A stretch of DNA of 64,000 nt, from contig JAGCOW010000057.1 of NCBI GenBank assembly GCA_017642535.1, positions 1 through 64,000 on the forward strand, read 5' to 3'. Under the pieces are notes generated by a model. The model saw only the letters and a list, made by a program, of their open reading frames with translations, was not told the DNA's origin and searched no databases. Positions 32,678 through 64,000 of this stretch are shown piece after piece. Both the position numbers and the translations under genes were made by a program. The DNA comes from Bacteroidales bacterium. Its GTDB lineage: Bacteria; Bacteroidota; Bacteroidia; Bacteroidales; UBA1715. Within the stretch, counting starts at the first letter, position 1. Every line of letters starts with the position of its first letter.

Positions 32678-32746
32678 ATGCACAACACGCACTTTTTGTG
32701 TGCTGTCGGCGTGAAAAAAACGTGTGATAATGAATTGTTAGGATAA
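32678..32746 (+). pseudogene. Relic of a rhuM gene after internal deletion
   Basis: The 69-base frame encodes MHNTHFLCAVGVKK and ends ELLG. Its first 40 bases match the rhuM gene at 48280-48320 (there MNNTHFLRVVGVK) and its last 20 bases, with the bases after the stop, match the 3' end of rhuM (48994-49020) and the promoter that follows it. About 700 bases of rhuM are missing between. It sits directly before a signal-peptide cassette, exactly as the intact rhuM does at 49020. Confidence 0.75.
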
Positions 32747-32754
32747 TTTTTTTC

Positions 32755-32762
32755 TATTTTTG
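32755..32762 (+). promoter_or_regulatory. Cassette promoter, copy 1
   Basis: TATTTTTG fits TAnnTTTG, with a TTG about 19 bases upstream as a weak -33 element. It is followed by GAACTCC and the signal-peptide start 20 bases later. The same arrangement recurs before most genes of the mosaic region. Confidence 0.6.
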
Positions 32763-32782
32763 AACTCCAAACATTTTTGATT

Positions 32783-35700
32783 TTGAAACTTTTCCGTTAC
32801 ATAGTGCCTGTTCTCTTTCTGTTCCTTTCATTTATAGGAGCTGCACAGACGGAATATACCCGTTATTATGACTATTATTGGAAACCTACTACGGAGAAAA
32901 ATGCCAAATATATGCGGAAAATCACCTATGGCAAGGATGGCAAGCCGCAGGGAATAACTCGTGATTATTATTATGATAGAGATTGGCCAAGTGGAAATCC
33001 CGTAATTCGCTTACGTTGGGAGGGACGTGTTCTTGCCGAAAATCTTAAAACAGGCGAACTTGTACTTGATGGGAAATGTGTCGGGTATAATCTTTTTGGG
33101 GAAATTACAAAGATTGCCAATTATAAAAATGGGGTCTTGCATGGATATTACTATAACGGTGAAAAGGAAGATTATTATAAACCTTGGGGTATTACATACG
33201 GTCATTATGTTGACGGGAAAGAGGAAGGCTGGTTTATCAGTAAACAGAAAGAGGATGTAGTGGCAACTTTGTATCGTAATGGAAGGAAAGTCCATAAAAT
33301 AATAGAGAGTTATAATTTCAAGGACATGCGATATACGTACTTCACAAATGGTTCATATCTTGAGATAAATGGCAATGATTCCGTACTCTATTCCAGTGGG
33401 GGCGAACACATCTATACTGACGAGTATATTTACGACACTATTGCGACAGAACATAAAGTTGTGAAAAGAAGAAGGAGTAAACTGGATACGGTTTCATACA
33501 CAATCTATTGGGACAGGGAATTTAAAAATCCTCAATATTCATATAAAAAAACATATTATGGCATAGAGTGTCTGACTTTTGATTTGTCGGGAAAACTGAT
33601 ACAAAAAGATTCTTTTAATAGTAGAGGATTCCATCAGCAAAAAATAATTGATGGAGACACAAGTTTTATCAATACATATGACAGGGATGGAGAGTTGCAG
33701 AGGAAGGAGTTTTCTTATCTTCAACGGTCTTTTAGCATAGTAAAACGTGACGGAGAATGGGTTTTCGATAAATACGACGAAATTCTTGCAAAAAAAATTG
33801 GAACAAAGTGGGAACTTCCGAAAAAATTAGTTGGTAACAGTTATTGTGTATTTTGGACAGGTGATTATTTGGGGCAGGAAAATCAAACGGTGACGAGGCA
33901 ATGTTTCGACCGTGCCGGACTGAAAATATGCGAAGTTCATATTTTGTGTCAAAAGGAGGGTATGGCTCAAGTTACTGTAACATTCTATGAAAAAGGTGAT
34001 CCGTCGAAAGTTCTTGTACAACGTAGTGGTGTTGTTGACTTAACAAGATGCCCTTATATTTATTCAGAATCTATACGTCTTCCTGATGTGTTTTCTGAAG
34101 TCAGTGGAATTTATTACGATTGTGGAAGTTATGACCTGGTTCCTACGCTTTTGCGGATTACAAAGAAGTACCAGGACGGCATTTTATATGGAATTGAAGA
34201 CAAAGAACGGAATGTTTCCATCGAACCAAAATATAAGGAAATCAGCGGTGTTAAAGGAGGGTATATTATTTGCCGGACAGCTGAATATGACGAACTGCTT
34301 GACGTTTCTCTGAAAAAACAGATCTTTTCAGCTCCTTATATTGAGGATGTTTTTGCAGGTGGCATAGTTGTATTTAGCAATCAGAAAGTGGATACCCCAA
34401 ATCAGAAATATGGTTTGGCGACGGTTGACGGAAAAATACTCGCTCCCTGCGAGTTCGATGCCATCATTACGAAAGATTTTGACAAAGGCATATTTTGGGT
34501 GCGGAAGGCGGGCAAATATGGCACTTATTCACATACTGGAGAATTGATAGCGGCTCCGAAATATGACATTCCATACCATGAGCCATACAACGATCCATAC
34601 TATGAGCCATACTATGAGCCATACTATGAGCATTTCACACGAATGAACATTGCGGGTGTCATGCAAAACGGAAAATACGGCATAATGACAACCGACGGAG
34701 ATTCATACACCAAATGCAAGTTCGACGAAATGATATTGATTGACTCCATAACATACGCAAACGAGGAAACCGACATAGTTGCCGTCGTACGAGTCGGTTC
34801 GCAGTGGGGGGCAATCAATCGTTTTGGCAAATATGTCATTTCTCCGCAGTACGACGATTTGATGCCTCTTGTTCAAGAGGTTGAAACTGAACCTGGAAAA
34901 TATGTGCGTGTTTTGGTATTTGCCGCTCAAAAGAAGAAAAAATGGGGCTCTGTTTCCTCTTCCAATCAAGTACTATTACCGTTCGAATACGAATATATGT
35001 CAACCGATGTGTATAACTCAAAACTTCTGTTAGAAAAAGATTCGTATGTGTATTCAATTGGAGTTTCGGACTTATATGATGGGGTTGATTTTTCTCATTT
35101 TGACAAATATAAAGCAACAAGTAGTGACGAAGAGAATCTGTACGATCCTGTCTATTATTTGGGAACATCCTATGTGGATTATCATAGTAAACATGCCTTC
35201 ACTATTATTACAGATAATAATGGGCGTCAAATTATTCCGCCTTCGTATCAGGAAATGGGTTTTCTTAATAATAACACGAATAACACGAGTTTCATACGGA
35301 AATATATGGATATAAATGGTAATTCTATATATAGATATAAAAAAAAGAATACTGACACTCTGTGTTGGATGTTACCAGCAGGGTTCGAGATAACATCGGT
35401 AAATGGGAAATTGGCAGTTGTGCAGACAAATACAGTGAAAAGATGTTACAAGAGCACTACTAGTGGTTCGAGATTTTGTCCGGATAAGAACAATGCGGTT
35501 TTTCGCAAGGTGGGAATATATGATTTGGAAGAAAAGCGTCTGGTGGTTGACACACTTTACGACATGGTTTATAACCCGACTGTGACAGATTCGTTATTTT
35601 GGGTAAGAAACTATCCTTACAAAGAAGATTTTAAAGCGTATATAAAAGAACGAACAACTGGATACGAAAATCCAGTTTTTACGGCTGCCGATAACCCATA

Positions 35701-36784
35701 TCAAAAGAATTGGCGTTTGTTGTCGTATAAAGGGAAACCCGTAAATTCAGTGGAATACGACTATCCTCATCAAATTTGCGGTTCGCTTGCCAAAGTGGGA
35801 ACAAGGGGAAATTATGGCGTAGTTGATTCAAAGGGACGAGAAATTCTTCCGCAGCATTATGACAATGTTGAATTTTTGAATTATAACTATGTGTTGTTTG
35901 GTAATCAAACATGGGGGCTTGCCGACCGCAACGGAAATGTTTTGTACAAAAATCGATGGACAAATGTTACTCCTTTTATCGGGAATTATTTTGTCGGATT
36001 CGCCGATACTGCCCTTGAGTTCGTAAATACTCGTGGGGAAATTGAGGCCTCGGTTCCGATTGGTAAAATACAGTCGCGTGACTATGATTTGAATCAGTAC
36101 ATTCACGCCCTCGATACGGTTTGTTCAATGACGGCAATTCCTGTCGAGGCACGAAATCAGTTGTTGTTTTTGCATGTTTTGTCGAAATCGTATGACAACA
36201 AAAAGTTAACTTGTAAACTGGATGATGTGGATTTCTCTGAGTTTCTAAATATAAGTGCGGATGAGGATTTTCTCCACCCGTCAATTCGGGGTAATTTCTC
36301 CTCGCCTTACAATTTGTCGCTTCGAGGGCAGACAGAACATACGTTGCAGTTTTTATTTAAGACAAGAGAATCTTTCGAAATATCGGGGGAAAGTATAGCA
36401 ACTTCGGTTGACACTTACAACTATGTGTTTGATGAATTTGGCGTGCATACTGTTGCATTAAAAGATTTGTTCAAGAAAAATGTCGATTATGAAAGTGTGT
36501 TGTCGAATCTTCTTCTGAAAAGAGTAAAGGAGAATTTTATGTATGTTAGCGATTATAAAATTTTTGATCATGAATATATAAAAGAATATGGGAATGATAG
36601 GTTGCTTATACCATATTATGAATTAGTAAAAGATTCCTATATGGTCAATAAGTATGGATTGACATTTTATTTATGTAAAAAAATACCTTCGTATTCGCCG
36701 GAAGTTTTATTGGTTATTCCGTATTTTGAACTACAAGAATACCTTGACTATTCTGGTCCGTTGAAATATTTTCTTGAAGAATGA
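32783..36784 (+). CDS. Giant exported WG/MORN-repeat protein 1
   Basis: About 1333 residues. TTG at 32783 is taken as the start because it matches the ATG of the paralogs (KLFRYIVPVLFLFLS signal peptide, cleavage near GAA). Residues about 25-200 carry MORN/YwqK-like repeats (YKNGVLHGYYY). From about 470 on there are WG repeats such as KYGLATVDGKI, QWGAINRFGKYVISP and TWGLADRNGNV. The end reads YLDYSGPLKYFLEE. A 12-base tandem repeat gives five units of the type PYYE near residue 600. Exported, probably periplasmic or surface; function unknown. Paralogs: 40928 and 50230. Confidence 0.88.
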   Translation: MKLFRYIVPVLFLFLSFIGAAQTEYTRYYDYYWKPTTEKNAKYMRKITYGKDGKPQGITRDYYYDRDWPSGNPVIRLRWEGRVLAENLKTGELVLDGKCVGYNLFGEITKIANYKNGVLHGYYYNGEKEDYYKPWGITYGHYVDGKEEGWFISKQKEDVVATLYRNGRKVHKIIESYNFKDMRYTYFTNGSYLEINGNDSVLYSSGGEHIYTDEYIYDTIATEHKVVKRRRSKLDTVSYTIYWDREFKNPQYSYKKTYYGIECLTFDLSGKLIQKDSFNSRGFHQQKIIDGDTSFINTYDRDGELQRKEFSYLQRSFSIVKRDGEWVFDKYDEILAKKIGTKWELPKKLVGNSYCVFWTGDYLGQENQTVTRQCFDRAGLKICEVHILCQKEGMAQVTVTFYEKGDPSKVLVQRSGVVDLTRCPYIYSESIRLPDVFSEVSGIYYDCGSYDLVPTLLRITKKYQDGILYGIEDKERNVSIEPKYKEISGVKGGYIICRTAEYDELLDVSLKKQIFSAPYIEDVFAGGIVVFSNQKVDTPNQKYGLATVDGKILAPCEFDAIITKDFDKGIFWVRKAGKYGTYSHTGELIAAPKYDIPYHEPYNDPYYEPYYEPYYEHFTRMNIAGVMQNGKYGIMTTDGDSYTKCKFDEMILIDSITYANEETDIVAVVRVGSQWGAINRFGKYVISPQYDDLMPLVQEVETEPGKYVRVLVFAAQKKKKWGSVSSSNQVLLPFEYEYMSTDVYNSKLLLEKDSYVYSIGVSDLYDGVDFSHFDKYKATSSDEENLYDPVYYLGTSYVDYHSKHAFTIITDNNGRQIIPPSYQEMGFLNNNTNNTSFIRKYMDINGNSIYRYKKKNTDTLCWMLPAGFEITSVNGKLAVVQTNTVKRCYKSTTSGSRFCPDKNNAVFRKVGIYDLEEKRLVVDTLYDMVYNPTVTDSLFWVRNYPYKEDFKAYIKERTTGYENPVFTAADNPYQKNWRLLSYKGKPVNSVEYDYPHQICGSLAKVGTRGNYGVVDSKGREILPQHYDNVEFLNYNYVLFGNQTWGLADRNGNVLYKNRWTNVTPFIGNYFVGFADTALEFVNTRGEIEASVPIGKIQSRDYDLNQYIHALDTVCSMTAIPVEARNQLLFLHVLSKSYDNKKLTCKLDDVDFSEFLNISADEDFLHPSIRGNFSSPYNLSLRGQTEHTLQFLFKTRESFEISGESIATSVDTYNYVFDEFGVHTVALKDLFKKNVDYESVLSNLLLKRVKENFMYVSDYKIFDHEYIKEYGNDRLLIPYYELVKDSYMVNKYGLTFYLCKKIPSYSPEVLLVIPYFELQEYLDYSGPLKYFLEE
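34571..34630 (+). repeat. 12-bp in-frame tandem repeat
   Basis: Five units of CCATACTATGAG or close variants encode repeated Pro-Tyr-x-Glu/Asp. The three rightmost units are identical. The repeat keeps the frame, so copy-number change would lengthen or shorten the protein without breaking it. Paralog 40928 lacks the array at the matching place. Confidence 0.8.
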
Positions 36785-36884
36785 AACTTTTTCGTTACAT
36801 AGTGCCCATTCTCTTTCTGTTCTGCTCGCTTGCGGGCAAGGCAACCACGAAGCCGACGGTTTCAAAACGTTGAAAGAGTGCTAA
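36781..36884 (+). pseudogene. Deletion relic of a cassette gene
   Basis: ATG at 36781 overlaps the previous stop as ATGA and gives a clean signal peptide start (MKLFRYIVPILFLFCSLAGK), matching the gene at 47416. The sequence then jumps to a copy of that gene's last 40 bases (encoding HEADGFKTLKEC in another frame, against YEADGFKTLKDW at 47982). About 460 bases are missing and the junction is out of frame, so the 30-codon reading frame stops at 36873. Confidence 0.8.
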
Positions 36885-36893
36885 CGCCGTAAC

Positions 36894-38072
36894 TCAGTAG
36901 TCAATGTCCGTTTCGAAATATTCCCTTAAGGGTGGGTATATCTTATATTTGTTGGTCGGCTCAAGCACGTATTTCCCCGTCAAGTCCATTATGCCATAAT
37001 AAAACATGCTATCTTCGACAATAATGTAGTTCCCCACAATAGTGGGAAGGGACAAAATTTGAGGTTTCAATACCCAGTTTCCTGTTCGATCTATGATTCC
37101 CCATTTGCCGTCAATTTTTGCACAAGCAAGATTATTTTTTGTAAAATTAGTTATTTCATCGAATTGAGGTTCAATGACCATGTCCTCAATCGTGTTGATA
37201 GCTCCATATTTATTGTCAATCCGTACCCATGCAAGACCGTTGTCGGCAAAATCAATAGCATCGTCAAATTGTGGTCGTATCACTATTTTTCCTGTTTTGT
37301 CTATATATCCGTATTTGTCATTTTCTAAGACTTTAGCCCTTCCGTTTGAAAAGTTTCCAACCCAATCATAATCAGGTTTTATGACAAGTTTCCCTTTTTT
37401 GTTTATATACCCATATTTATGTTTTATTCTAACGGCAGCTAAACCTTCTGAAAAATCACCCAAGTGTTGATATTTTGAGTTAGGTTTTATTACGATAGTT
37501 CCTGTTGAATCCGCATAACCATATTTCAATTTTTGACTAATTACGGTCAAGCCTTCCGAAAAAAGTGTCATCACGGTAAATGATGTTATCGTTGTGATTT
37601 TTCCTGTGCGTTCATCAACAAATACCGTTGTGTCGGAGTTCCAGTCCTTGTTTAGTACGTGTATGCCATCAAACTTTTGCAACGGTACAGACATGAGGTT
37701 AACATATTGTGGTTCGATGACCATTTTCCCCGTTTTGTCTATAAAACCATATTTGCCATTTATTTCGATGGCTGCCAGTCCGTTTTCGAAATGAAAATCT
37801 TCAGCCCAATCAAATTGTGGTTCAATGACTCTTTTTCCCGTTTTGTCAATATAACCATATTTGTCTTTGATTCTAACCACAGCAAGGTCGTTTGCCGAGA
37901 ATGGTTTTGCGTAATCGAATTGTGGTTCAATAAGATATTCACCATTAGTTTTTATATATCCATAATAGCCGTAACAATTCTCCACCTGAAAAATCACGCT
38001 GTCGCTTGGCGAAGCCCATACGGCAAGGTTGGCAAGGAGGCAGACGAAGAAAATGAAATGTTTCGGAGTCAT
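36894..38072 (-). CDS. Exported WG-repeat protein
   Basis: The 392-residue protein has a signal peptide (MTPKHFIFFVCLLANLAVWA) and about nine WG-type repeats of about 35 residues, for example DKYGYIDKTGKRVIEPQFD and GKWGIIDRTGNWVLKP. Several repeats are nearly identical at the protein level. Unlike its neighbours it lacks the shared signal-peptide cassette and is on the minus strand, downstream of the ATPase gene at 38090 by 17 bases. WG proteins are of unknown function and likely form a repeat scaffold in the periplasm. Confidence 0.88.
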   Translation of the reverse strand: MTPKHFIFFVCLLANLAVWASPSDSVIFQVENCYGYYGYIKTNGEYLIEPQFDYAKPFSANDLAVVRIKDKYGYIDKTGKRVIEPQFDWAEDFHFENGLAAIEINGKYGFIDKTGKMVIEPQYVNLMSVPLQKFDGIHVLNKDWNSDTTVFVDERTGKITTITSFTVMTLFSEGLTVISQKLKYGYADSTGTIVIKPNSKYQHLGDFSEGLAAVRIKHKYGYINKKGKLVIKPDYDWVGNFSNGRAKVLENDKYGYIDKTGKIVIRPQFDDAIDFADNGLAWVRIDNKYGAINTIEDMVIEPQFDEITNFTKNNLACAKIDGKWGIIDRTGNWVLKPQILSLPTIVGNYIIVEDSMFYYGIMDLTGKYVLEPTNKYKIYPPLREYFETDIDY

Positions 38073-39355: not shown

Positions 39356-39403
39356 TGCACCGTCATGTCGAACGGAGCGAAGCGGAGAGAGACATCTCAT
39401 CAC
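39356..39403 (+). repeat. Dispersed repeat, copy 1
   Basis: This copy reads TGCACCGTCATGTCGAACGG, then GAGCGAAGCGGAGAGAGACATCTC. Further copies are at 40825, 54820, 59083 and 63586. It is followed directly by the cassette promoter (39432-39439), but here the promoter serves a different gene start. Confidence 0.85.
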
Positions 39404-39637: not shown

Positions 39638-39644
39638 ATGTGAT

Positions 39645-40927: not shown

Positions 40928-43900
40928 TTGAAACTCTTTCGTTACATAGTGCCGATTCTTTTTCTGTTCCTTTCGTTTGTAGGAGCTGCACAGACGGAAT
41001 ATACCCGTTATTATGACAAAAAATGGAAACCGACCACAAAAGACAATGCAAGTTATATGCGAAAAATTACCTACGGCAAAGACGGAAAGCCGAAAGGTGT
41101 CGTCCGCGATTATTATTACGACAGTAACAATAATTCTATTGTGGCTCTGCAATGGGAAGGTTACATTGTTTCCGAAGACTTGGAAACAGGTAGGGACGTT
41201 CTCGATGGAAAATGTATCTGGTATGATGAATGGGGTGGCGTAGAAAAAGTCAGCACCTATAAAAATGGCGTGTTGGATGGATATTATTTTTATGGAAAAG
41301 ATGAAATCTATGGCTGTTACAAGAATGGGGAAAAGAACGGATGGTTTATAGATTACGACACAGAGGGGGTTAATTTGTCTTTCTATGAGGATGGAAAGAT
41401 ACTCTACGAAGTGACAGAAACAGGGACGTACAAGTACAATGAAGCTGTTTATACCTATCATCCCAATGGCACTTATCAAAGGGAGGATCGATATGATGAC
41501 GGCTCTGTTGGTACAAATTTCTATTCCGCCGAGGGAAACAGATTCGACGATCCACAGACACTTGTTCTCTTGTCCGACACGGTGAAAGGGGAATATAAGT
41601 TGATGAAAATAGAAAAGAAAAACTACGACGGAAACGTAAGCATTGATACCTTGTCCTACAAGGTTTATTGGGATAAAGATTTCAAGATTCCCCGATATTC
41701 ATACAAGGTGGTAAAAGATCCGAAACCCATTGAAACAATATATAGGGCGTATGATACGGCTGGCACTCTTGTGAGGGAGGAGAAAATCTTTTTCGACGGA
41801 AAACGAAAAGTGGAGACAATTGATGGCGATTTGACCGTTTGTATTTCCTATGATAAAAACGGTGAAGAAATCAGAAAATCCTATTATAGTGGCCATCACT
41901 ATAACAGATCTTCAGTGGTAGAAAAAATAGGGCAAGAATGGTTTTTTACGAAATATGATGAAAATCTAATCACAAGTATTAAGGATAAATATAATTTTCC
42001 GAAACAAAGATATTGGCCAGGGAAGAATTGGTATGGTTGGAATGGGGATTTTGGATATTGGACGGGTGATTACATGCAGCAGGAAAACAACACATATACG
42101 GGTGTTTATTACGACAAAGCAAATCAGAAAATTTGCGAACTCAGTATTTTGTTCAAAAAGGAAAATAATAAGGAAAAACGAGAGGTTACTATAACATTTT
42201 TCGAAAAGGACAATCCATCGAAAGTGCTTACGCAGCACCGCTTTGAAGGTGGAGAATGGGGATGGTTTGTCAATGGCTTTTTTAGCCATGAGGTGCGCCA
42301 AAACTATTGTAATGTAAAAGGTTGCAGATATTATGATTATGATTTTGACCTTGTTCCTGTGCGTTTGCGAACGACAATGAAGAATGTTCTTTACGGGATG
42401 ATGAACTTGGATAACAATGTTTCTGTGGAACCAAAGTATAACCAGATTCGTGGAACCAATGGCGGATACATTATTTGTGAAACGGACAAGAACTGCGAAT
42501 TGTACGACATTTTTTTGACAAAACAAGCGTTTTCGGCTCCGTACATCAAGCAGGCCTTTGATGGCGGTCTGGTTGTGTATAGCAAACAAAAAAATGAAGT
42601 GCCGGATAGAAAATACGGCCTGGCTCTGGTTAATGGGAAAATAATCACGCCGTGTGAATTCGACTTTGTAGCCACAGACTTAGATAAAGGTTTACTCTGG
42701 GTACGGAAAAACGGGAAATTCGGTGCGTATTCCAAAACGGGCAAAGTATTGATAGCTGTGGAATACGATAAACCAAACTTTGTATTTAAGACGAATTTTA
42801 CTCCATTGAATGTGGTGGATGTAATGAAAAACGGGAAATATGGCATAGCAACCGCCAATGGAGACGCATACACGAGGTGTCAGTTTGACGAAATGATACT
42901 GATTGACTCAGTAACTGCTACAGATTCCGAAAAAGATATTGTCGCTCTCGTGCGTGTGGGAACCTTGTGGGGAGCAGTGAACAGAAAGGGGCGTTACGTC
43001 ATTTCACCGCAATACAACGAGGTGCAGCCTTTTATTTCCGATGTTGATGTTGAGAAAGGAAAAACTGTTCGTCTTTTGCAGATTATTGCCTCGAAAAATG
43101 GAAGATGGGGCGTGGTTTCCTCGTCGAACCAGGTGCTTTTGCCTTTTGAATACGAATACGTGTCCGCTTGTAGTTATAATTCTATGTTGATGATGAAGGA
43201 TTCCAAAGTGTATTGCATTGGAGCACAGGAATTGTATGATGGTTTTGATAAGGTTAATGTTGAGAAATATAGAATATCATCCGATTTTCACTTGGAAGAA
43301 AATAGATATCCGCAAAAGTATTATGTGGGGACGTTGATGAAGGATTATTACAAAAGCGGTTTTATAATTGTGTGCGACGACAATGGTCACCAAATAATTC
43401 CACCGACCTATTCTGTATATCATCATGGGGGTGAGTGGGTTTCTCCCAACATAAAGAAATATATGGACACCGAGGGGAATTCCGCCTATGTGGATTCCGA
43501 GAAAACCTTGATTTATACCTTACCTGCCGGATTTGAGATAGAAAGAATCTTTGGCGATTATGCGGTAGTGCATACCAACACTACCAAAAGACTGCTTCAC
43601 GATTGGAACGGTGTTTATTTCGGCGACAGGAACGATTTTTATAAAATGGGAATATATCATTTGAAAGAAAAACGGCTTGTGGTCGATACGCTGTACGACA
43701 TGGTTTACAAACCCCAAGCGACTGATTCTTTGTTTTGGGCGAAGATTTATCCCGATAAGGAACATTTTGAGGAGTACAAAAGTGCTCATTTGGTAGGATT
43801 TGAAGATCTTTACTTTACTTCTTACGAAAATCCTTACCGTAAAAATTGGCGTTTGTTTTCATATACGGGAAAACCTGTCAATTCGGTTGAATACGAATAT

Positions 43901-48040: not shown

Positions 48041-48048
48041 TATATTTG
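48041..48048 (+). promoter_or_regulatory. -7 promoter element of rhuM
   Basis: TATATTTG, 15 bases before the ATG at 48064. An in-frame TTG lies within the box and cannot be the start. Confidence 0.55.
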
Positions 48049-48063
48049 GAAAATTTTTCAATC

Positions 48064-50229: not shown

Positions 50230-53200
50230 ATGAAACTTTTCCGTTCCATACTGCCGATTTTCTTTTTCCTCCTCTCGCTGATGGCTACGGCACAGAATGA
50301 ATATACCCGTTATTATGATGCGAATTGGAAACCGACCACGAAGGATAATGCGAGTTATATACGGAAAATCACCTACGGCAAGGATGGGAAACCCCAAGGA
50401 CTTGTCCACGATTATTTTTATGACAAATGGAACGATTCGATACAAGGTCTCCAATGGGAAGGATATATTCTTTCCGAAAATCTTGAAACAGGTAAGGATG
50501 TTTGTGACGGAAAATGTGTCTGGTATAACAGGGAAGGAAAAATAGAGCAAGTCGCAACGTATAAAAACGGTGTGTTGAACGGACCATATTGGCATAGAAG
50601 AGATTTTGATGGAGAAATAAAATTGGGAAATTATAAAGACGGGAAAATTGACGGTTGGTTTTTTAAATACAACGCAGACTATGTTTATGTTTACAAAGAT
50701 GGTTTTGATTATCCATATCAATACGTTTACGGACGTACACCAAAAGTTCTAAGTAAAGATAATGATGAAGATGGAGTGATAACAATTCCTTCGGAACGGA
50801 AAAAGATTTTTTACAATCGTAGCACGCCCAATGTTATTCAATCATATAGGATATATTGGGATACGTCTTATAAAGTGCCTCAATTTGAGTACCTAAATTT
50901 AATATATTGCGACAGATATCTTTATTTAAACAAAGATGGTTGGGATGAAGGTGCTGAATACAAGTTTCACGATGGCATTCACAATAGCAGATATGCATAT
51001 TCGAAGTTTAGGTATTATAAAAGAGGTAGGGAGGTGTTGACAAAAAGTCTGGAAATGCAACAAGACGTATATAAGCGATGGGAAAGGTCTAAAGTGTATG
51101 ATTCGGTTGCATTTACTGATAAAAATCTGTTGTGGGTGCAAAAAGACGGGAAAGTAGGTGCAGTTTCACAGTCCACGGGAAAAATAGTCATAAAACCAAT
51201 ATATTCGGTTCCTCGTTTAGATGGAGGCTACTGTTGTCCGGTGTTTACAAATTTGGATGTCGGGGTTGTTTCGTCAAACAATAAATTCGGTTTGGTTACT
51301 CCTCAAGGCGACGCATACACCAAATGTGTGTTTGATGAATTGACGTTGCTTGACACTTACGATAAAAAAATGGTCAAATCTCCTATAGTTGCAGCAGCTC
51401 GGATAGATAGCTTGTGGGGTGCAGTCGATCGGTATGGGACGTTTGTCATTGCTCCGCAATACAGCGAAATGCAACCGTTTGTACAGCAAGTTACACAAAA
51501 TGGCGTTGAAAAATGCCGGTTTTATTTTGCGGTAAAACGAAATGGGAAGTGGGGTGTTGTTTCAGCCCAAAACAAGGTTGTTGTTCCTTTTGTGTTCGAC
51601 CAAATAAGTGTACTATGCTGTTATGACGTATTCCCTTCGTATATATTTTCTGTAGTGTATCTTGTAAAGGATTTGAAAGCATACGCAGTTGACGCACTTG
51701 AACTGGAAAACAAAAATCTCCTCGCGAATCTCGAAACATATAGAATGGGGAAAAATACCCCAGAGAATTATCTTCTTTTTTATCCGTCACGATATGTGTA
51801 TAGCCGTCATAGTGATTTTAGCAATCACAGGTATCATCTTTCTTTTGAGTTTGATAAAAATGATAATTTACTCTATCCGCCAAACTATTGTATGGGAGGG
51901 GGAATAACCAATGACGACGTGCGGAAAAGAATTGACGCATACGGTAATTCTATCTATCTTGATCAGAAAGATTCGGTGCTTTGTAGTCTTCCCGCAGGAT
52001 TTGAACTTATAACCTGGCAGGGAGACCAAGGTGTTGTGCTGACCAATAAAAACAAACGCAAGGGTGATTTTGGTGATTTTGGATATTCGGTCAACGATAA
52101 TGAATATCAGAAAGTTGGCGTCTATAATATGAAAAAGAAACAATTATTGATAGATACTCTGTACGATATGATTTATGAGCCGAACGCAACCGATTCGTTG
52201 TTTTGGGTGAGAATCCACCCTGACAAGGAACACTTTGCAGACTATAAAAACTCGCATTTAGGTGTAGAGGGAGAATTTTATTACCGCGATTGGCTGGAAA
52301 ATGGCTGGCAACTGATGTCATATACGGGTAAAAAGGTAACGGAACAAACATTCCAATTCCCTCATCAGGTAAACGGTAGTCTTGCGAAAATTGGTGTTTC
52401 GGGCAGTTATGGCGTGATGAATCAGGAAGGGAAAATAATTTTGCCTCAAATATATGAGAAGATATTTTTTCAAAAACATGAGATGATTTTGTTTGGCTCA
52501 CAAAAGTTTGGACTGGCAAACAGAAACGGCGAAATTTTGGTTGAAAACCGTTGGACTTCTGTTTCCCGTTTTTTAGGAGATTATTTCGTCGGTTTTTCCG
52601 AAAATGCAATTGATGTGGTTGACACAACGGGAAAAATCGTTAATACAATAAATATCCAAATGTTGAAAAATCCTAAAATAGATTTGTCGAAGTATCTGGA
52701 ATGTCCCGAGTCGTTATGTGATTTGTCGCCACTTTCGCCAGAAATACGGAATGTTGTGTTGCTGAATTTTGCCCGACAGAATTTAAGCACTTTTAATTAC
52801 TTTCTTGGCCATGAATGGTATAGCGAAGATAAAATGGAACTTTTGGCGTATGTGCAATGTGACAAGTATTTTCGTCCAAGCCATCCTGGGAGATTTAAGA
52901 CGGTACCGAACTATCCTCAAATTGATATTATTCGTCAGTCTCCAACAGTTTTCCAAATGAAGATTGACGATATTTCCGACAATTCGAAGGTAACGCACAA
53001 AACGTACAATTATGTCTTAGAGGACAATTCCCCTCGTCTTGTTGAATTGAAGGATCTGTTTAAAAAGGGTAGCGGTTATGAAAATGTTCTAAACGCCATA
53101 ATACAAAAAAGACTGGAGGAGTTTTCAATTATTCAGCGCGATGCGCAAGGTTTGTATCGGGGTTACTATGTTTCTAATGACAATTATGTCCTAACTCGAA

Positions 53201-53364
53201 TTTCCAGTTTTCATATTCCGGATTTTGTCTCTGAATATGTGATATATCCTTATGGAATAAAATTTTACGCAAAAAGCGACAAATCTGTTGTTATTGTTCC
53301 ATATTTTGAGATAGAGAATTATTTGGACTATTCTGGTCCGTTGAAATATTTTCTTGAAGAATGA
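50230..53364 (+). CDS. Giant exported WG/MORN-repeat protein 3
   Basis: The 1044-residue protein has a variant signal peptide (MKLFRSILPIFFFLLSLMAT), the shared head (NEYTRYYDANWKPTTKD), MORN-like repeats (YKNGVLNGPYWH, YKDGKIDGWFF), and WG repeats (KFGLVTPQGDAYTKC, LWGAVDRYGTFVIAPQY, KWGVVSAQNKVVVPF, KFGLANRNGEILVEN). It ends YLDYSGPLKYFLEE and overlaps the next start as ATGA. It lacks part of the middle region of its two longer paralogs. The start lies five bases after the stop of 49055, so the pair is probably co-transcribed. Confidence 0.88.
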   Translation: MKLFRSILPIFFFLLSLMATAQNEYTRYYDANWKPTTKDNASYIRKITYGKDGKPQGLVHDYFYDKWNDSIQGLQWEGYILSENLETGKDVCDGKCVWYNREGKIEQVATYKNGVLNGPYWHRRDFDGEIKLGNYKDGKIDGWFFKYNADYVYVYKDGFDYPYQYVYGRTPKVLSKDNDEDGVITIPSERKKIFYNRSTPNVIQSYRIYWDTSYKVPQFEYLNLIYCDRYLYLNKDGWDEGAEYKFHDGIHNSRYAYSKFRYYKRGREVLTKSLEMQQDVYKRWERSKVYDSVAFTDKNLLWVQKDGKVGAVSQSTGKIVIKPIYSVPRLDGGYCCPVFTNLDVGVVSSNNKFGLVTPQGDAYTKCVFDELTLLDTYDKKMVKSPIVAAARIDSLWGAVDRYGTFVIAPQYSEMQPFVQQVTQNGVEKCRFYFAVKRNGKWGVVSAQNKVVVPFVFDQISVLCCYDVFPSYIFSVVYLVKDLKAYAVDALELENKNLLANLETYRMGKNTPENYLLFYPSRYVYSRHSDFSNHRYHLSFEFDKNDNLLYPPNYCMGGGITNDDVRKRIDAYGNSIYLDQKDSVLCSLPAGFELITWQGDQGVVLTNKNKRKGDFGDFGYSVNDNEYQKVGVYNMKKKQLLIDTLYDMIYEPNATDSLFWVRIHPDKEHFADYKNSHLGVEGEFYYRDWLENGWQLMSYTGKKVTEQTFQFPHQVNGSLAKIGVSGSYGVMNQEGKIILPQIYEKIFFQKHEMILFGSQKFGLANRNGEILVENRWTSVSRFLGDYFVGFSENAIDVVDTTGKIVNTINIQMLKNPKIDLSKYLECPESLCDLSPLSPEIRNVVLLNFARQNLSTFNYFLGHEWYSEDKMELLAYVQCDKYFRPSHPGRFKTVPNYPQIDIIRQSPTVFQMKIDDISDNSKVTHKTYNYVLEDNSPRLVELKDLFKKGSGYENVLNAIIQKRLEEFSIIQRDAQGLYRGYYVSNDNYVLTRISSFHIPDFVSEYVIYPYGIKFYAKSDKSVVIVPYFEIENYLDYSGPLKYFLEE

Positions 53365-54110
53365 AACTCTTTCGTTACATAGTGCTGATTGTGTTTTTGT
53401 TGCTTACAACAATATCGTTGCAGGCACAAGAAGTCAGTCTTTGTAGTAATACAAGGCTAATATTATTATCGTGTAATGAGAATGATAATTTAGATATTTT
53501 GCGAATGCATAATGGTATTTTAATCACAAAGGACAAAAATAAAATCCTTTTTAGTGAAGAAATGTATCCTACTATAGATGGTATTGTTTTTGATATTCCT
53601 GATATAATATGGATAATTCAAGGCTACGATACGATGAGGGTAGATGGGATTCCCAGTAGTCTCCTTAATTATCATTTGAAAAATTTTGAGTTCAAGAAAG
53701 GGAATTGGTTTATAAAGACAAAACCGTGGTTTCAGCAAAAAGTTGTAACGGGAAGTGAAATTTTTAATCCAACTATGTCGATTGTAAAAGTTCATCAAAG
53801 GGAAAAAATAAGACACGTCAATGATAAATATGAATCTTTCGATGAAATGAGATTCTTTGAAATAGATTTAGCAGATACTAACGAGGTTGAGATGATGTCT
53901 ATGGATAGCAGTTTTAGCAATAAGTATTATAATACACCACGTTCATATTATGATATTTTGGAGTGGCAAGATTACTTATTATTTGACGAAGATGCTAAAC
54001 AATATGTTGAAAAGATACAAAAAGAATATGATTATTACGGTTCAGGTCGAAGAGTTCCGTATATTGCACCTTATTATACAAAAGAGGAATATGAGGAGTC
54101 AATAAAGTAA
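53361..54110 (+). CDS. Small exported protein homologous to the tail of 49055
   Basis: The 249-residue protein starts at an ATG overlapping the preceding stop, with the shared signal peptide (MKLFRYIVLIVFLLLTTISL). The mature part matches residues about 190-370 of the protein at 49055 throughout, for example PWFQQKVV and DYLLFDEDAKQYVEK. No known family. Confidence 0.78.
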   Translation: MKLFRYIVLIVFLLLTTISLQAQEVSLCSNTRLILLSCNENDNLDILRMHNGILITKDKNKILFSEEMYPTIDGIVFDIPDIIWIIQGYDTMRVDGIPSSLLNYHLKNFEFKKGNWFIKTKPWFQQKVVTGSEIFNPTMSIVKVHQREKIRHVNDKYESFDEMRFFEIDLADTNEVEMMSMDSSFSNKYYNTPRSYYDILEWQDYLLFDEDAKQYVEKIQKEYDYYGSGRRVPYIAPYYTKEEYEESIK

Positions 54111-54949: not shown

Positions 54950-54976
54950 CATCAAAATGGTAAAAAACGAATTGAT

Positions 54977-57564: not shown

Positions 57565-58971
57565 TTGAAACTTTTTCGTTCCATACTGCCCATTTTCTTT
57601 TTCTTCCTCTCGCTCGGGGCAGTGGCGCAGATGGACAAGGACGGCAATTTCCATTGGGACGAGTTGTACACGCCCGACGAGGTTTTGGAGCTTGATATGT
57701 CGTTGCCGAACAAGGTGGATGTTTCTGCAATAAAAAACAGGAAGCGGGTGAAATATGTGAAGTTGAGATACAATCCATGGATGGCAAGTCTTCCATTTGA
57801 TACAACTTGTTTTCCAAACTTGGAAAGTTTGAGCATAGAAACCTCATTGTTAATAGACTTGCAAGGTTTGGAACATTTTACACAATTAAAGCGACTTGCT
57901 TTGATACCAGATAGCACAAGGTGGTGCAGGAATGTATTGCAGGAGCAGTTGCCGTCGGTATATTCAAAAGTATGGAATTTGACAAATTTGGAAGAATTGG
58001 ATTTGAGTATAGCCCCCGTTGCCATAGCAGATTTTTCAAAATTGAAGAATTTGCAAGCGTTAAAAGGTCATTTCGTGTATCCGTATATTGACAAACAGAT
58101 TGAAAATCTGAAGTCCTTACGCCAAGTGTATCGAATTCCATATTTGTATCCTTATGATTCATTTGAAGAAATACAACAAATGCGTGAAAATAAAAAAGAG
58201 GTCATTGTAAAAAGAAGAAATGGTATGGTAGTCGAAAAACAGATTAAACATGTGCCTCGACATGAAGGAAGAGTATATCTGGAATATTATAACTCATATG
58301 GAAATGACACATTGCATTATTGTTTTCTTCATAAGAATCGATATAGTCGTCCGTTATACTTTTTATGTGATAGGTATGAGAAAATCCGTGAAGATATAAG
58401 AGGGATGGAAACACGAGAATATTGTGTGATTTCAGATACGATAAGTATAATTATAGAAGGTCTTGGTTGCATAAAAGATTGGGCTTTGATTGAGCGACAA
58501 CGTCTTTGCGTATATTGTCCAAAGGAACAAAAAGTCGTATTTCTTTTCAGACATGGAGACTCAGATATTGAATTTATTATTCATTTTGCAATAATAGATT
58601 TACAAACTAATGAAATTAAAAGTGATGAGTTTTATATGAGGAATAATGAATATTATAGTAATTATGACAGTTATAGTAATTATGACTATAATCCTTCTGC
58701 CACTTTTTTATGTACCATACTAGAATCAGAACTAACTTGGAAGGATTCTCATTATAAGAAAGGGCACGATAAACAAGGTCATGAGATATACAAGGATATA
58801 TATAAAAATAAAGAAAAAATAAGTCTGGAATTGTTGGAAAAGTACAAAGACCAACTTGCATTCGCTTGTTCTTTGCATTCAGGGGATTATTTGATTAGAA
58901 AATATTATAAAAAGAATTACGATACCTACTATGATAAATATATAAGGACATTACGATACTTACTACGATAA
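57565..58971 (+). CDS. Exported leucine-rich protein A
   Basis: About 468 residues from TTG at 57565 (matching ATG in paralogs). Signal peptide KLFRSILPIFFFFLSLGAVA, then a head shared with 60818 (MDKDGNFHWDELYTPDE, LPNKVDVSAIKN). Leucine-rich motifs follow (FPNLESLSIETSLLIDLQGL, FTQLKRLALIP, LTNLEELDLS). The latter half is of unknown type. The 3' end lies in a 34-base tandem duplication that shifts the frame; without one unit the protein would continue into 58985-59173. The upstream box AATCTTTG is a weakened cassette promoter. Confidence 0.8.
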   Translation: MKLFRSILPIFFFFLSLGAVAQMDKDGNFHWDELYTPDEVLELDMSLPNKVDVSAIKNRKRVKYVKLRYNPWMASLPFDTTCFPNLESLSIETSLLIDLQGLEHFTQLKRLALIPDSTRWCRNVLQEQLPSVYSKVWNLTNLEELDLSIAPVAIADFSKLKNLQALKGHFVYPYIDKQIENLKSLRQVYRIPYLYPYDSFEEIQQMRENKKEVIVKRRNGMVVEKQIKHVPRHEGRVYLEYYNSYGNDTLHYCFLHKNRYSRPLYFLCDRYEKIREDIRGMETREYCVISDTISIIIEGLGCIKDWALIERQRLCVYCPKEQKVVFLFRHGDSDIEFIIHFAIIDLQTNEIKSDEFYMRNNEYYSNYDSYSNYDYNPSATFLCTILESELTWKDSHYKKGHDKQGHEIYKDIYKNKEKISLELLEKYKDQLAFACSLHSGDYLIRKYYKKNYDTYYDKYIRTLRYLLR

Positions 58972-59224: not shown

Positions 59225-60049
59225 TCAATGGTAAACTATCATATCAGCCAACTGAAGGAAATAATCGTTTGACCAAATGTCAAGTTCGTGTTTGTTGATA
59301 ACATATGGTAACACGTCTGCTTTAACGCTTGCTATGTCGGTTTCGGCAAGACGTTTTTTGAGCAGTTCCGTAAATTGTTCTTTTTCTAAATCAATGCCGT
59401 TGAAATCTTTTGCACGGACTTGTAGATGGTTGAAATCAAGAGCGATGCGATTCCTGACGTACCATTCAAAATCGTACCAGTCGCGTCCCTTGATGCGGTT
59501 TTTCCATTGACGGAACACAAGGGCGTGCATTTTTCCTGCATACAGGTCTGGCAACGTGAAACAACGTGTGGGAAAAGAAAATGGCTGCATCAATATTTTT
59601 TGCTCCGTGTTGAATTGTAATGGCGGATTTGTGTCAACTTCAATTTTTATCTTGAGCGATTTCTCTGTCTGGAATTCCACGTCGTACACGTCGGTATTGT
59701 CTTTGAGAAACGCTGATTCAACTTTGCCGAATGTTTTTTTTTCTTTTTTCGTGATGGAAACATCTCTGCCGAGCAATCGCGCTTCGTCGATTATTGCCTG
59801 AAAATAGTTCTCAAGCTTGAAATCTTTATTTTTTTGCAATAAAGAGAAGTCCAAGTCTTCGGAATATCGCTTGAGTCCGTGAAAGATTCGCAGGCACGTG
59901 CCGCCATAGAAAGCAGCTTCTTTGAAGAATCCGCCACGGTATAGTCCGCCGAGAATTACTTGTTGCATAACCTCATAAATTGCGTTACGCATGTCGGTTT
60001 CGCCTACGACGGAGTGTTGCAGGAGCATTTGTTCAAAAATTTCGTTCAT
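59225..60049 (-). CDS. abiEii: AbiEii-type nucleotidyltransferase toxin
   Basis: The 274-residue protein matches the AbiEii/AbiGii family: GGTCLRIFHGLKRYSEDLDF holds the nucleotidyltransferase Gly and paired Asp, and KIEVDTNPPL follows downstream. Family members transfer nucleotides to RNA and arrest growth, acting in toxin-antitoxin and phage-abortive systems. It overlaps its partner AbiEi by four bases, so translation is coupled. Confidence 0.9.
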   Translation of the reverse strand: MNEIFEQMLLQHSVVGETDMRNAIYEVMQQVILGGLYRGGFFKEAAFYGGTCLRIFHGLKRYSEDLDFSLLQKNKDFKLENYFQAIIDEARLLGRDVSITKKEKKTFGKVESAFLKDNTDVYDVEFQTEKSLKIKIEVDTNPPLQFNTEQKILMQPFSFPTRCFTLPDLYAGKMHALVFRQWKNRIKGRDWYDFEWYVRNRIALDFNHLQVRAKDFNGIDLEKEQFTELLKKRLAETDIASVKADVLPYVINKHELDIWSNDYFLQLADMIVYH

Positions 60050-60666
60050 TTTAGATATTTGATTAACGTGTTGATACTTTGTTGTTTACGACTGGTTCTC
60101 GCACATTGTTCAAGAATGTCGATATTGAAGTTTTTTAGTTCGTCGGTGTCGAAACGAATATCTTCTTCGAGATAGATTTCAACGTCTTTCATAAACCGTA
60201 GATTAAGGTTTTTGCTGAAATTGATGACGTCGCACAATGCCTTTTCCGGCGAGGCAATGAGAAATGTAACGCCGTCGGATTGTTCCATTCTTACGCCGAT
60301 GGAGAAGTATTCGGGTGAACAGTTCTGGTAGGAATAATTCCCCGTGGCATTTTCAAAATCCCTTGAATGTTTGGTGGTTACAGATGTGAGAAGATACACT
60401 CGTTCGGGAATGAGTCCATAATAACGCAAGGCATATTCACGCCCCACATACGAAGGTCCGTACAAGTGGTTGGCTATAAGTTCCTGCGAGATGGGTTTGC
60501 CTGTTTCTTCGGGACTTGCCACATATAATCCCTTTTTGAGCCGAATGATTTTCCCCGATTTTTCCAACGCACGGGCTTTTTCGTTGATATGCTTGTTCTT
60601 TGGAAATAGCGAAGCAAGAATGGTGCTATCGAACGGTATGTTACCAATGTTATTGAACGGAGTCAT
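60046..60666 (-). CDS. abiEi: AbiEi-type antitoxin
   Basis: The 206-residue protein has an N-terminal winged-helix part (NEKARALEKSGKIIRLKKGL then YVASPE) and the antitoxin core with NHLYGPSYVGREYALRYYGL and LIASPEKALCDVI. In the family the antitoxin represses its own operon and neutralises AbiEii. It is first of the pair, with a consensus promoter at 60684. Confidence 0.9.
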   Translation of the reverse strand: MTPFNNIGNIPFDSTILASLFPKNKHINEKARALEKSGKIIRLKKGLYVASPEETGKPISQELIANHLYGPSYVGREYALRYYGLIPERVYLLTSVTTKHSRDFENATGNYSYQNCSPEYFSIGVRMEQSDGVTFLIASPEKALCDVINFSKNLNLRFMKDVEIYLEEDIRFDTDELKNFNIDILEQCARTSRKQQSINTLIKYLK

Positions 60667-60817: not shown

Positions 60818-62110
60818 TTGAAACTCTTTCGTTACATAGTGCCGATTTTCTTTCTGTTCTACTCGGTTGCGGCAGTGGCGCAGATGGACAAGGACGGCAA
60901 TTTTCATTGGGACGAGTTGTACACGCCCGATGAGATTTTGGAACTTGATATGTCGTTGCCGAACAAGGTGGATGTTTCTGCAATAAAAAACAGGGAGCGG
61001 GTGAAATATGTGAAGTTGAAATGCTACCCGTGGATGGAGCACATACCGTTTACTCCCGAAGATTTCCCGAATATCGAGGCGTTGAGGATAGAGACATATT
61101 TGCTTGTTGATTTAAGGAATCTTGAACTTTTTACGGGGTTGAAACGGTTGGGGGTTACAGAACCAAATTGTATGGAAACCTTTATACGAGTTATACAAAA
61201 TAAATTTCCTCAACCATACGCGAATAGGGTTTGGTCATTGTCCGCTTTGGAAGAAATTGATTTTTCAATAGGCAATGGTCTAATGGTATCAAAGAATTCC
61301 CTTTCTAAATTGTCTAATCTACATTGTTTAAATAATAAATTTTGTGGTGCATACTTATATGATGAAGTTACGAAGTTGCAAAATATGCAGAGGTGTAATT
61401 TTGTTAAAACCATGTTTCCCATTCGTAAAACTGACAGAAAACTTAAACAAGGTAGTTGGAAGATGACATATTATTGTTCTGATCGCTTTAAGTATTATCA
61501 TTATAGCAGTGAATTATTCAAGACGGATTCTATCTATGAATGTGTTTTACATTTATATAATAATAACGAGAAGGATACTATTTATACGTCAGTTTATGGA
61601 TATTGTTGGATTTCTGATACTATTTTAATAACTCAATATGGCTTAATTTCTTGTGAAACAAGGAAATATATAGAAAATAGAACAGCGTGTATCTATAATC
61701 CTTCTGAAGAAAAATTGATTTTGCTTGATTTTGACGCACTGAATAATTATCATCCCTACTATTTCTTGATGATTGACTTTAGAAAAAAGATATTGATAAG
61801 TTATGATACAAAAGATGAATGTAATTATGTGATAGAAGAAAATAAAGTATTTGTTAATAATAAATATAGTTTGGGATATCCAAACTCCTTCTATTGGGGA
61901 GAAGGGGAATGTAAAGAAAAATCAGAGCCAGGTCATGAGTTTGACTATTTTGAGTTGTTTGACGATACTCTCAAAATAAGTGAATTAAAGAAAGTACAGA
62001 TGTTAGACTCATATAAGAAAGAATATGAAAAGCAGATAGAATTTGCGAAAAGCTTGAAAAGTTTAGAATGTATTATTACAAATTATAATAGAAAATGGCG
62101 ACGCTTTTAG
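60818..62110 (+). CDS. Exported leucine-rich protein B
   Basis: About 430 residues from TTG at 60818: signal peptide KLFRYIVPIFFLFYSVAAVA and a head nearly identical in DNA to 57565 for about 150 bases after the signal peptide (ending near VKLKC). After that the two diverge sharply, though the protein still shows leucine-rich motifs (FPNIEALRIETYLLVDL, ELFTGLKRLGV) and a distantly similar C-terminus (YEKQIEFAKSLKS). Function unknown. Confidence 0.82.
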   Translation: MKLFRYIVPIFFLFYSVAAVAQMDKDGNFHWDELYTPDEILELDMSLPNKVDVSAIKNRERVKYVKLKCYPWMEHIPFTPEDFPNIEALRIETYLLVDLRNLELFTGLKRLGVTEPNCMETFIRVIQNKFPQPYANRVWSLSALEEIDFSIGNGLMVSKNSLSKLSNLHCLNNKFCGAYLYDEVTKLQNMQRCNFVKTMFPIRKTDRKLKQGSWKMTYYCSDRFKYYHYSSELFKTDSIYECVLHLYNNNEKDTIYTSVYGYCWISDTILITQYGLISCETRKYIENRTACIYNPSEEKLILLDFDALNNYHPYYFLMIDFRKKILISYDTKDECNYVIEENKVFVNNKYSLGYPNSFYWGEGECKEKSEPGHEFDYFELFDDTLKISELKKVQMLDSYKKEYEKQIEFAKSLKSLECIITNYNRKWRRF

Positions 62111-62194
62111 ACAGTTTGTCACATATTGATGATGGAGATTTAGGGTTCGCCACTGAATTACCTAAGAGTGGAAACGAGATAATTTGAATGTGTT

Positions 62195-62707: not shown

Positions 62708-62898
62708 AAAAACGTAGGTTATGAACAGTTTAAGTAACAAGATGACGCAACCCAGTCGGGGTGGTACAGACAAAATAACTCGTTGAAAAAATGGTCGTTA
62801 TGCTTCTAATACTTTAGATACTACAAAATAGATAGTGTTTTTTATGAATTTTTTCTTTGTCATTTCTCACCGAATACAAAAAGTAAAAGAAATCTTTC

Positions 62899-62906
62899 TA
62901 TCTTTG
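62899..62906 (+). promoter_or_regulatory. Cassette promoter, copy 8
   Basis: TATCTTTG followed by GAACTCC. About 20 bases upstream lies a degenerate TTTGTC...TACAAAAAGTAA hairpin half. Unlike most copies, the start here is ATG (62927). Confidence 0.65.
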
Positions 62907-62926
62907 AACTCCAAACAATTTTGATT

Positions 62927-63478
62927 ATGAAACTTTTCCGTTACATATTGCCTATAGTTTTTCTGTTTCTTTCTTTTTTGGTAGTAGGACAGACAATTAC
63001 GACGTATTATCCCAAAGTTGATAGACAAAGTCGTGATTACATACATATTATGAAAGTTGTTGTGGAGCCAAACCAGGTCTATGTGGTATTCAGATACAAC
63101 GTGTTGGGAAACGACAAAGTCGGAATGGGTTCGCAAACCAGTTTGCGTTGCGGTTCGTTTATAAGTACCATACAGCAGTTTGGCATACTTTCCGACAGCA
63201 TTCAACGTGAGTTGCCGTTTGATAAATGGATTTCCCTTAATGCTCCAGAAAATGTACAATATGCAAGTAAACCGTTTATTTATGTAGATGAGAATGGTGA
63301 AAAATGGAACGCACGTTCGTATGATTTTTTTATGGTGTTTCCTGGAAAATTACCAGAATATGCACGTAAGATTTCTATATATGAAAATGCGGAGTCGTTT
63401 TATGGAAGCGATGGTTCCAATCCTTTTAATTGGGAAGGAATTCACATAAACAATTTGCATCCAGAAGAAGAATGGTGA
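62927..63478 (+). CDS. Exported protein of unknown function
   Basis: The 183-residue protein from ATG at 62927 has the shared signal peptide (MKLFRYILPIVFLFLSFLVV). The mature part (QSRDYIHIMKVVVEPNQVYV) is beta-rich with no recognised family. Confidence 0.78.
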   Translation: MKLFRYILPIVFLFLSFLVVGQTITTYYPKVDRQSRDYIHIMKVVVEPNQVYVVFRYNVLGNDKVGMGSQTSLRCGSFISTIQQFGILSDSIQRELPFDKWISLNAPENVQYASKPFIYVDENGEKWNARSYDFFMVFPGKLPEYARKISIYENAESFYGSDGSNPFNWEGIHINNLHPEEEW

Positions 63479-63585
63479 CGAAGAAATAACCTATAAAAAA
63501 ATAAATGGAACGGTGAAACGAATTTGCTTTTTCTTCCTATTGGTACTTGCGAATTTCTGTTCTTTCGCTCAAGTTGACTCTTTCC

Positions 63586-63633
63586 TGCACCGTCATGTCG
63601 AACGGAGCGAAGCGGAGAGAGACATCTCATCAC
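63586..63633 (+). repeat. Dispersed repeat, copy 5
   Basis: Same element as at 39356; the following 30 bases up to the promoter match those after copies 1 and 2. Confidence 0.85.
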
Positions 63634-63662
63634 AGAAAATTATACAATCTTCAAATTTTTCC

Positions 63663-63670
63663 TATCTTTG
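63663..63670 (+). promoter_or_regulatory. Cassette promoter, copy 9
   Basis: TATCTTTG followed by GAACTCTAAAACATTCATTT, with the TTG start at 63689. Confidence 0.65.
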
Positions 63671-63688
63671 AACTCTAAAACATTCATT

Positions 63689-64000
63689 TTGAAACTTTTT
63701 CGTTCCATAGTGCCCATTGTTCTTATGCTCTTTGCTATAAAGGGTATGGCACAGCCAATTGCCGATGAGGAATATAGGCAACGGCTTGCCGATTCGCTGA
63801 AAAAAGAGCTATCGCAGTATTATCCAAATGCAAAAATATGGGAATCCTATTCTTGGGGTAGGTACGTGAATATTCAATTAGAAAAAGAGAATGGATGTTC
63901 CGAGAACTGGAAATATTGCTATGATTACCGCAGTAAAAAGTATAATGTAAGTTCTTTTGAGGTGAAAACAGATTCCGTTTCTGTTGAATATTCTTATGGT
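63689..64000 (+). CDS. Cassette-led exported protein, cut off by window edge
   Basis: The frame is open from TTG at 63689 to the window end (104 codons). It has a variant of the shared signal peptide (KLFRSIVPIVLMLFAIKGMA) and a mature part starting QPIADEEYRQRLADSLKKEL, for which I recognise no family and see no homolog in the window. Confidence 0.75.
   Translation, partial: MKLFRSIVPIVLMLFAIKGMAQPIADEEYRQRLADSLKKELSQYYPNAKIWESYSWGRYVNIQLEKENGCSENWKYCYDYRSKKYNVSSFEVKTDSVSVEYSYG

What the first reader, a model, noticed from the sequence alone, without database searches (positions are those of the whole stretch)
32683..64000. Mosaic locus: one promoter plus signal-peptide cassette joined to many unrelated exported proteins
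Twelve near-identical DNA copies of the segment encoding about MKLFRYIVPILFLFLS, most with the same TAnnTTTG leader, start genes at 32783, 36781, 40928, 44959, 47416, 49055, 50230, 53361, 57565, 60818, 62927 and 63689. The mature proteins belong to several unrelated types. Constant 5' DNA with changing bodies, conserved 3' ends, chimeras and deletion scars together suggest recombination that swaps expressed secreted proteins, as in cassette or antigenic-variation loci.
Basis: partly seen in the sequence, partly recalled or inferred. Interest (0 to 1): 0.85.

Follow-up and report, generated by a model that had tools for sequence, protein, structure and literature searches.

The report
Shared signal-peptide segment joins swapped modules
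In a ruminant-gut type bacterium, one short DNA segment carrying a promoter and an export signal heads many unrelated exported proteins, and comparison with two sister species shows that gene blocks have been swapped between species with many of the joints falling inside that segment.

Summary
All 12 starts carry the same signal-peptide (SP) DNA, all on the + strand. Seven also carry the same promoter leader; five are joined to other upstream DNA. Behind them lie about seven unrelated body types (WG-repeat, LRR, FISUMP-like, orphans).

Two congeneric MAGs, from sheep rectum and water-buffalo rumen, decide the interpretation. Core genes tested are only 73-76% identical to this genome's. Yet their SP arrays contain blocks 97-99% identical to window blocks, in different order and with different neighbours. 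Block ends coincide with SP/promoter/repeat segments: 10 of 18 ends against 2.6 expected, never reached in 20,000 placements. One crossover maps to a few bases inside the SP codons. Modules differ in age (dS 0 to 0.27), so exchange was stepwise.

No tyrosine or serine recombinase gene lies on the array contigs, all copies are direct repeats, and several genes have their own promoter. The best reading is homologous recombination between short shared 5' segments, exchanging whole modules between species, much like 'terminal reassortment' of secreted effectors. Programmed antigenic variation is not shown. Within-species switching could not be tested, and all three genomes are draft assemblies (the two sisters are MAGs).

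The parts
32668..32824 (+). left edge of the array: promoter leader + SP segment, 90% identical to the left edge of the G001 array, where it carries a different body
32783..36784 (+). SP + WG-repeat exported protein 1 (promoter type)
36714..36841 (+). constant 3' end of WG gene (LDYSGPLKYFLEE) overlapping the next SP (stop/start ATGA)
36781..36873 (+). SP stub: SP fused to the last codons of the 47416-type gene (body deleted)
36782..38072 (+). module (SP stub + convergent WG-repeat gene on the - strand) 99.1% identical to G001 C20, where it sits behind a promoter-type leader
39360..39398 (+). REP-like intergenic repeat; further copies at 40829, 54824, 59087, 63590, all same orientation
40928..44962 (+). 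SP + WG-repeat protein 2 (promoter type)
44959..46335 (+). SP + unique region + FISUMP-like tail, overlapping the WG2 stop codon
46370..46829 (+). FISUMP-family upstream region and promoter plus the first 8 bases of the SP, now in front of an unrelated gene at 46830
47416..47982 (+). SP + orphan body
48046..49020 (+). RhuM/Fic-type gene (PADLOC candidate PDC-S23), passenger
49055..50224 (+). SP + WG-type N-terminus fused to 53361-type body (chimera)
50230..53364 (+). SP + WG-repeat protein 3; about 99% identical to G001 after the first ~160 bp, 5' part replaced
53361..54110 (+). SP + orphan body, overlapping the WG3 stop codon
54820..57621 (+). module (REP, DUF4143 AAA ATPase, LRR-like gene, next promoter/SP) 98.4% identical to G001; ATPase part 98.9% to G003; ATPase protein identical in all three
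57565..58971 (+). SP + LRR protein 1
59225..60666 (-). AbiEii/AbiEi toxin-antitoxin pair inside the array, passenger
60818..62110 (+). SP + LRR-related protein 2; first ~250 bp match 57565, then diverge
62810..63572 (+). module around SP gene 62927, 97.4% identical to G003; differences clustered in the promoter, 1 in the gene
63689..64000 (+). SP + body (gene continues to 64951 on the contig); last SP gene of the array

Best explanation
The locus is an accessory array of exported-protein genes that share a roughly 30-150 bp 5' segment: a promoter leader plus the signal-peptide codons, probably derived from a dispersed FISUMP-like gene family. Because that segment is repeated in direct orientation in this array and in sister species, it works as a homology arm. 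Ordinary homologous recombination between an incoming DNA module and the resident array, or between array copies, resolves within the shared segment, so a whole module (body plus following genes up to the next shared segment) is exchanged, gained or lost and stays joined to a promoter and a Sec-type export signal. Shown: near-identical modules in different contexts and species, junctions in the segment, one crossover mapped inside the SP, different module ages, stubs and chimeras. Inferred: that RecA-type recombination does it, that DNA arrives by transfer between species, that the proteins are expressed and exported, and that the benefit is rapid change of the exported repertoire.
For: Blocks 97-99% identical between G000 and G001/G003 are reordered with sharp edges, while core genes are 73-76% identical with dS about 1.5 or more. 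Block ends lie in SP/promoter/REP elements for 10 of 18, in both genomes for 9; random means 2.6 and 0.19, never reached in 20,000. Separate count: 11 of 39 edges in SP segments against 2.2 expected, 0 of 10,000. Adjacent blocks in G001 overlap by 57 and 40 bp exactly in the SP. The crossover at G001:19100 lies between about +17 and +22 of the start codon. The same body has a TTG start behind a promoter in one species and an ATG start behind a WG 3' end in another. Inside otherwise near-identical modules, differences cluster in the shared segment. Module dS ranges from 0 to 0.27. SP stubs occur next to opposite-strand genes. Tyrosine recombinases lie on other contigs only, and no serine recombinase was found in G000 or G001.
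Against: The sister genomes are MAGs, the window genome is a 96-contig draft, and no reads were available. One genome per species, so rates within a species are unknown. Edge counts are not fully independent (the same junction can be seen in two comparisons), and the promoter and REP classes were added after looking. 8 of 18 block ends are not in a recognised shared element. Exact matches between copies are short (median 17 bp, maximum 60 bp), near or below what is usually considered enough for efficient RecA recombination, so a helper process may be needed. Expression and export are predicted only.
Confidence: 0.72

Rival explanations
1. Programmed antigenic or phase variation: a recombinase switches which body sits behind an expression site within a population, as in mycoplasma Vpma/Vsa or Bacteroides invertible loci.
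For: Constant 5' DNA with variable exported bodies in tandem; recombination in the locus is real.
Against: No tyrosine or serine recombinase on the array contig. All copies point the same way and there are no long inverted repeats. Seven copies have their own promoter, so no single expression site. Breakpoints differ in position along the segment.
Confidence: 0.1
2. Tandem duplication of one ancestral exported gene followed by divergence; the SP is merely the most constrained part.
For: WG1, WG2 and WG3 are true paralogues along their length, and 57565 and 60818 are related along theirs.
Against: About seven body types show no similarity beyond about 30 residues. Synonymous codons in the SP agree far above expectation. 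Near-identical bodies carry different 5' contexts in different species.
Confidence: 0.05
3. Assembly artefact: short-read assemblers mis-joined contigs at the repeated SP segment.
For: The sister genomes are MAGs and the window genome is a draft; G001 contig C20 ends inside its array.
Against: Longest exact word between copies is 60 bp in G000, 29 in G001 and 36 in G003, shorter than ordinary reads. The sister MAGs come from different animals by their titles. One arrangement is shared by G001 and G003. Open frames of over 1000 codons start in the segment and run on intact.
Confidence: 0.07
4. A cassette system with a dedicated site, integron-like, in which the SP segment is an attachment site for a recombinase encoded elsewhere.
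For: Modules of different content in one orientation, with defence-type passengers.
Against: Only 2-3 tyrosine recombinases per genome, none near the arrays. Crossover positions vary and replaced tracts extend up to 300 bp into coding sequence.
Confidence: 0.06

Closest known systems
Terminal reassortment of type III effectors in Pseudomonas syringae (Stavrinides et al. 2006, cited in PMC6460904)
   Same: A short N-terminal region with the export signal is shared by otherwise unrelated secreted proteins, giving chimeras.
   Different: Here the signal reads as a Sec-type signal peptide in a gut Bacteroidales, the genes sit in one array, and multi-gene modules between shared segments are exchanged between species.
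Mycoplasma Vpma/Vsp/Vsa surface-protein loci (PMC2268961)
   Same: Multigene locus with conserved DNA in front of each start codon serving as recombination site.
   Different: Those use a linked tyrosine recombinase, inversions and a unique promoter; here there is no linked recombinase, only direct copies, and several promoters.
Phytoplasma sequence-variable mosaics / potential mobile units (PMC3743221)
   Same: Clusters of diverse genes in mosaic order.
   Different: Those are repeated units with replication and transposition genes, interpreted as composite transposons; no such genes were recognised among the array proteins here.
Integron gene-cassette arrays (own knowledge)
   Same: Direct-oriented modular array of mostly orphan genes with toxin-antitoxin and defence-type passengers.
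   Different: No integrase on the array contig; the shared element is at the 5' coding end; modules carry promoter and signal peptide; junctions are not at one point.

Membership tests
Terminal reassortment of secreted proteins | shared N-terminus with export signal on unrelated C-terminal bodies | tested here: met
Terminal reassortment of secreted proteins | joined by recombination rather than common descent along the gene | tested here: met
Terminal reassortment of secreted proteins | proteins are injected effectors of a type III system (original setting) | not tested
   N-termini read as Sec-type signal peptides by eye; no secretion-system search was made
Vpma/Vsa-type antigenic variation | linked site-specific recombinase | tested here: not met
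   none on C75, nor on the array contigs C20 (G001) and C144 (G003)
Vpma/Vsa-type antigenic variation | single expression site, other genes silent | tested here: not met
   promoter motif in front of several genes; expression itself not testable
Vpma/Vsa-type antigenic variation | switching within a clonal population | not testable with these tools
   one genome per species, no reads
Bacteroides invertible promoters / shufflons | inverted repeats flanking an invertible segment, with linked invertase | tested here: not met
Integron array | integrase gene at the array | tested here: not met
Integron array | attC recombination sites | not tested
   no attC fold search was made

The most novel reading that the evidence does not exclude
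The promoter plus signal-peptide segment has become a maintained, recombinase-free docking site. Its repeated copies are kept alike by gene conversion, so that any new open reading frame captured between two copies is at once expressed and exported, making the array a between-species exchange system and a nursery for orphan exported proteins.
Probability: 0.33. Interest if true: 0.82.

Novelty: new variant of a known kind. Interest (0 to 1): 0.62.

Why it matters
It gives a case, with mapped joints, of how bacteria can trade exported proteins between species: the shared export signal itself is where the DNA recombines, so each newly joined body keeps a promoter and a signal. It offers a source for exported orphan proteins in gut Bacteroidales and makes testable whether short 5' homology alone drives module exchange. 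For annotation it warns that N-terminal similarity in such loci does not mean homology of the mature protein.

Tried and rejected
Plasmid similarity search of the segment: no match. Exact scan of viral contigs: none, so no phage carrier was seen. Genome-collection scan: only the two sister MAGs plus a single match in a Flavobacteriales MAG that was not followed. Rfam and tRNA scans of the window: nothing. Empty-site comparison: the two flanks (UbiD and the gene at 65069) are on different contigs or over 50 kb apart in relatives, so no clean empty site could be read. Structure prediction of two bodies gave low-confidence models (mean pLDDT 32 and 52), so no fold search was run. The intergenic repeat as sole driver was rejected: related copies are dispersed elsewhere in sister genomes, and most located junctions lie in the SP or promoter. 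Paper searches for the same arrangement in Bacteroidales found none, within an open-access library only.

Full report
What is there. The shared DNA covers the start codon and about 13-16 codons of a signal peptide (MKLFRYIVPILFLFLS). Mean pairwise identity is 0.90 and 0.87 in the first two 15-bp bins and decays to chance by +90; codon agreement among identical residues is 77% against 40% expected. Seven copies carry the same promoter leader (TATC/TTTTGAACTC about 28 bp before the start; imperfect at 57565). Three copies overlap the constant 3' end of a WG-repeat gene, stop and start sharing ATGA. Two have other upstream DNA. Promoter-type copies mostly start with TTG, the others with ATG. The array continues to 64951 and is followed by genes without the segment, of housekeeping type as read by eye.

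Bodies. By Pfam, NCBIfam and all-against-all blastp the 12 bodies fall into about seven unrelated types: WG-repeat proteins (32783, 40928, 50230), the 53361 type (also the body of chimera 49055), a FISUMP-like tail (44959; TIGR02145 below its cut-off), the 47416 type (and its stub 36781), LRR or LRR-related proteins (57565, 60818), 62927 and 63689. Matches between types cover only the first 20-30 residues. Two bodies searched in 295 Bacteroidales genomes were found essentially only in this genus; the 53361 body had one further weak partial hit, and the matches of the 60818 protein outside this genome cover only the SP. Passengers include a DUF4143 AAA ATPase, an AbiE toxin-antitoxin pair and a RhuM/Fic-type gene.

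Where else the segment occurs. It is found at 17 places in this genome, 12 of them in the window. It is found in two other genomes of the genus; of 57 further relatives one gave a single three-mismatch match. Dispersed copies mostly head FISUMP-like genes, many with the promoter leader, so that family is the likely source of the segment (inference). In G002, which lacks the segment, and at one G001 locus, FISUMP-like bodies carry a different signal peptide.

Cross-species comparison. Two core genes of G000 are 73-76% identical to those of G001 and G003, and synonymous sites are near saturation, dS about 1.5 or more, in UbiD and a gene flanking the array. Yet array blocks are 97-99% identical with sharp edges. 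Window 36782-38072 matches G001 19101-20391. Window 50231-53401 matches G001 20613-23774. Window 54820-57621 matches G001 16354-19157. Window 54820-56179 matches G003 16668-18027. Window 62810-63572 matches G003 25094-25855. (G001 coordinates count from C20:135000; G003 coordinates are on the flipped stretch C144:12000-51999.) Order and neighbours differ. A further 4.1-kb block shared by G000 C34 and G001 C24 begins exactly at an SP segment, behind a promoter in one and behind an ATPase 3' end in the other.

Junctions. In G001 adjacent blocks overlap by 57 and 40 bp, precisely in the SP. At G001:19100 the left part matches window 57565 to about +17 of the start codon and the right part matches window 36781 from about +22. 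Of 18 block ends, 10 lie in an SP, promoter or REP element, 9 of them in both genomes; random placement gives 2.6 and 0.19, never reached in 20,000 trials. A count with SP segments only and unmerged blocks gave 11 of 39 against 2.2. The ends are not all independent. Other junctions fall in the promoter: the same ATPase block runs into two different genes just after TATCTTTGAACTCTAAAA, and at 46830 the FISUMP promoter plus eight SP bases run into an unrelated gene.

Conversion and ages. Within shared modules the remaining differences cluster in the shared segment: 5 in the first 50 bp against 7 in the other 1240 bp of the 36782 module; 14 in about 80 bp before gene 62927 against 1 within it; 52 in the first 300 bp of WG3. 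Module dS ranges from 0 (62927) through 0.004, 0.017, about 0.03, 0.04 and 0.05 to 0.27 (49055 body), so modules moved at different times. The ATPase protein is identical in all three species, with 7-9 synonymous changes only. Stubs with deleted or missing bodies recur, some next to opposite-strand genes, which points to the DNA segment itself, not only its protein product, as the recombination substrate.

Mechanism. Each genome has two or three tyrosine recombinase genes, none on the array contigs; no serine recombinase was found in G000 or G001, and those of G003 lie on another contig. Copies are direct repeats and there are no long inverted repeats. Crossover positions vary. This fits homologous recombination between short shared 5' segments, with module gain, loss and exchange after DNA transfer. 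RecA dependence and the route of transfer are inferred. Exact identity between copies is short (median 17 bp, maximum 60 bp), which is the weakest point of the mechanism.

Limits. The sister genomes are MAGs and the window genome is a draft in 96 contigs. Shared exact words are shorter than ordinary reads, one arrangement is found in two MAGs from different animals, and long frames start in the segments and run on intact, so artefact is unlikely but not excluded. Variation within a species, expression and export could not be tested.

Comparison with known systems. In what it works like, it is nearest to terminal reassortment of effectors (cited in PMC6460904; the original paper was not held). 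It fails the linked-recombinase and single-expression-site features of Vpma/Vsa loci as described in PMC2268961.

Noticed in passing
window 39620-39665 and 62170-62215: A second, smaller 5' segment is shared by two unrelated exported genes (MGIRKTI / MGIGKTI): 46 bp, 96% identical, spanning the start codon.
   Followed up: partly
window 54947-56155; G001 C20; G003 C144: DUF4143 AAA ATPase identical in protein in three species with only synonymous changes; a relative (40% identical) sits in the C34/C24 block, again just before an SP gene.
   Followed up: partly
L054 8292: In G003 C97 an SP is fused directly to the last codons of a FISUMP-like gene, a body-deleted stub.
   Followed up: no
L063 1806-1830: Single exact match to the SP pattern in a Flavobacteriales MAG (NORP269); possibly chance.
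   Followed up: no
window 11916-11962 and 18215-18260: 47-bp direct repeat, 89% identical, outside the array.
   Followed up: no
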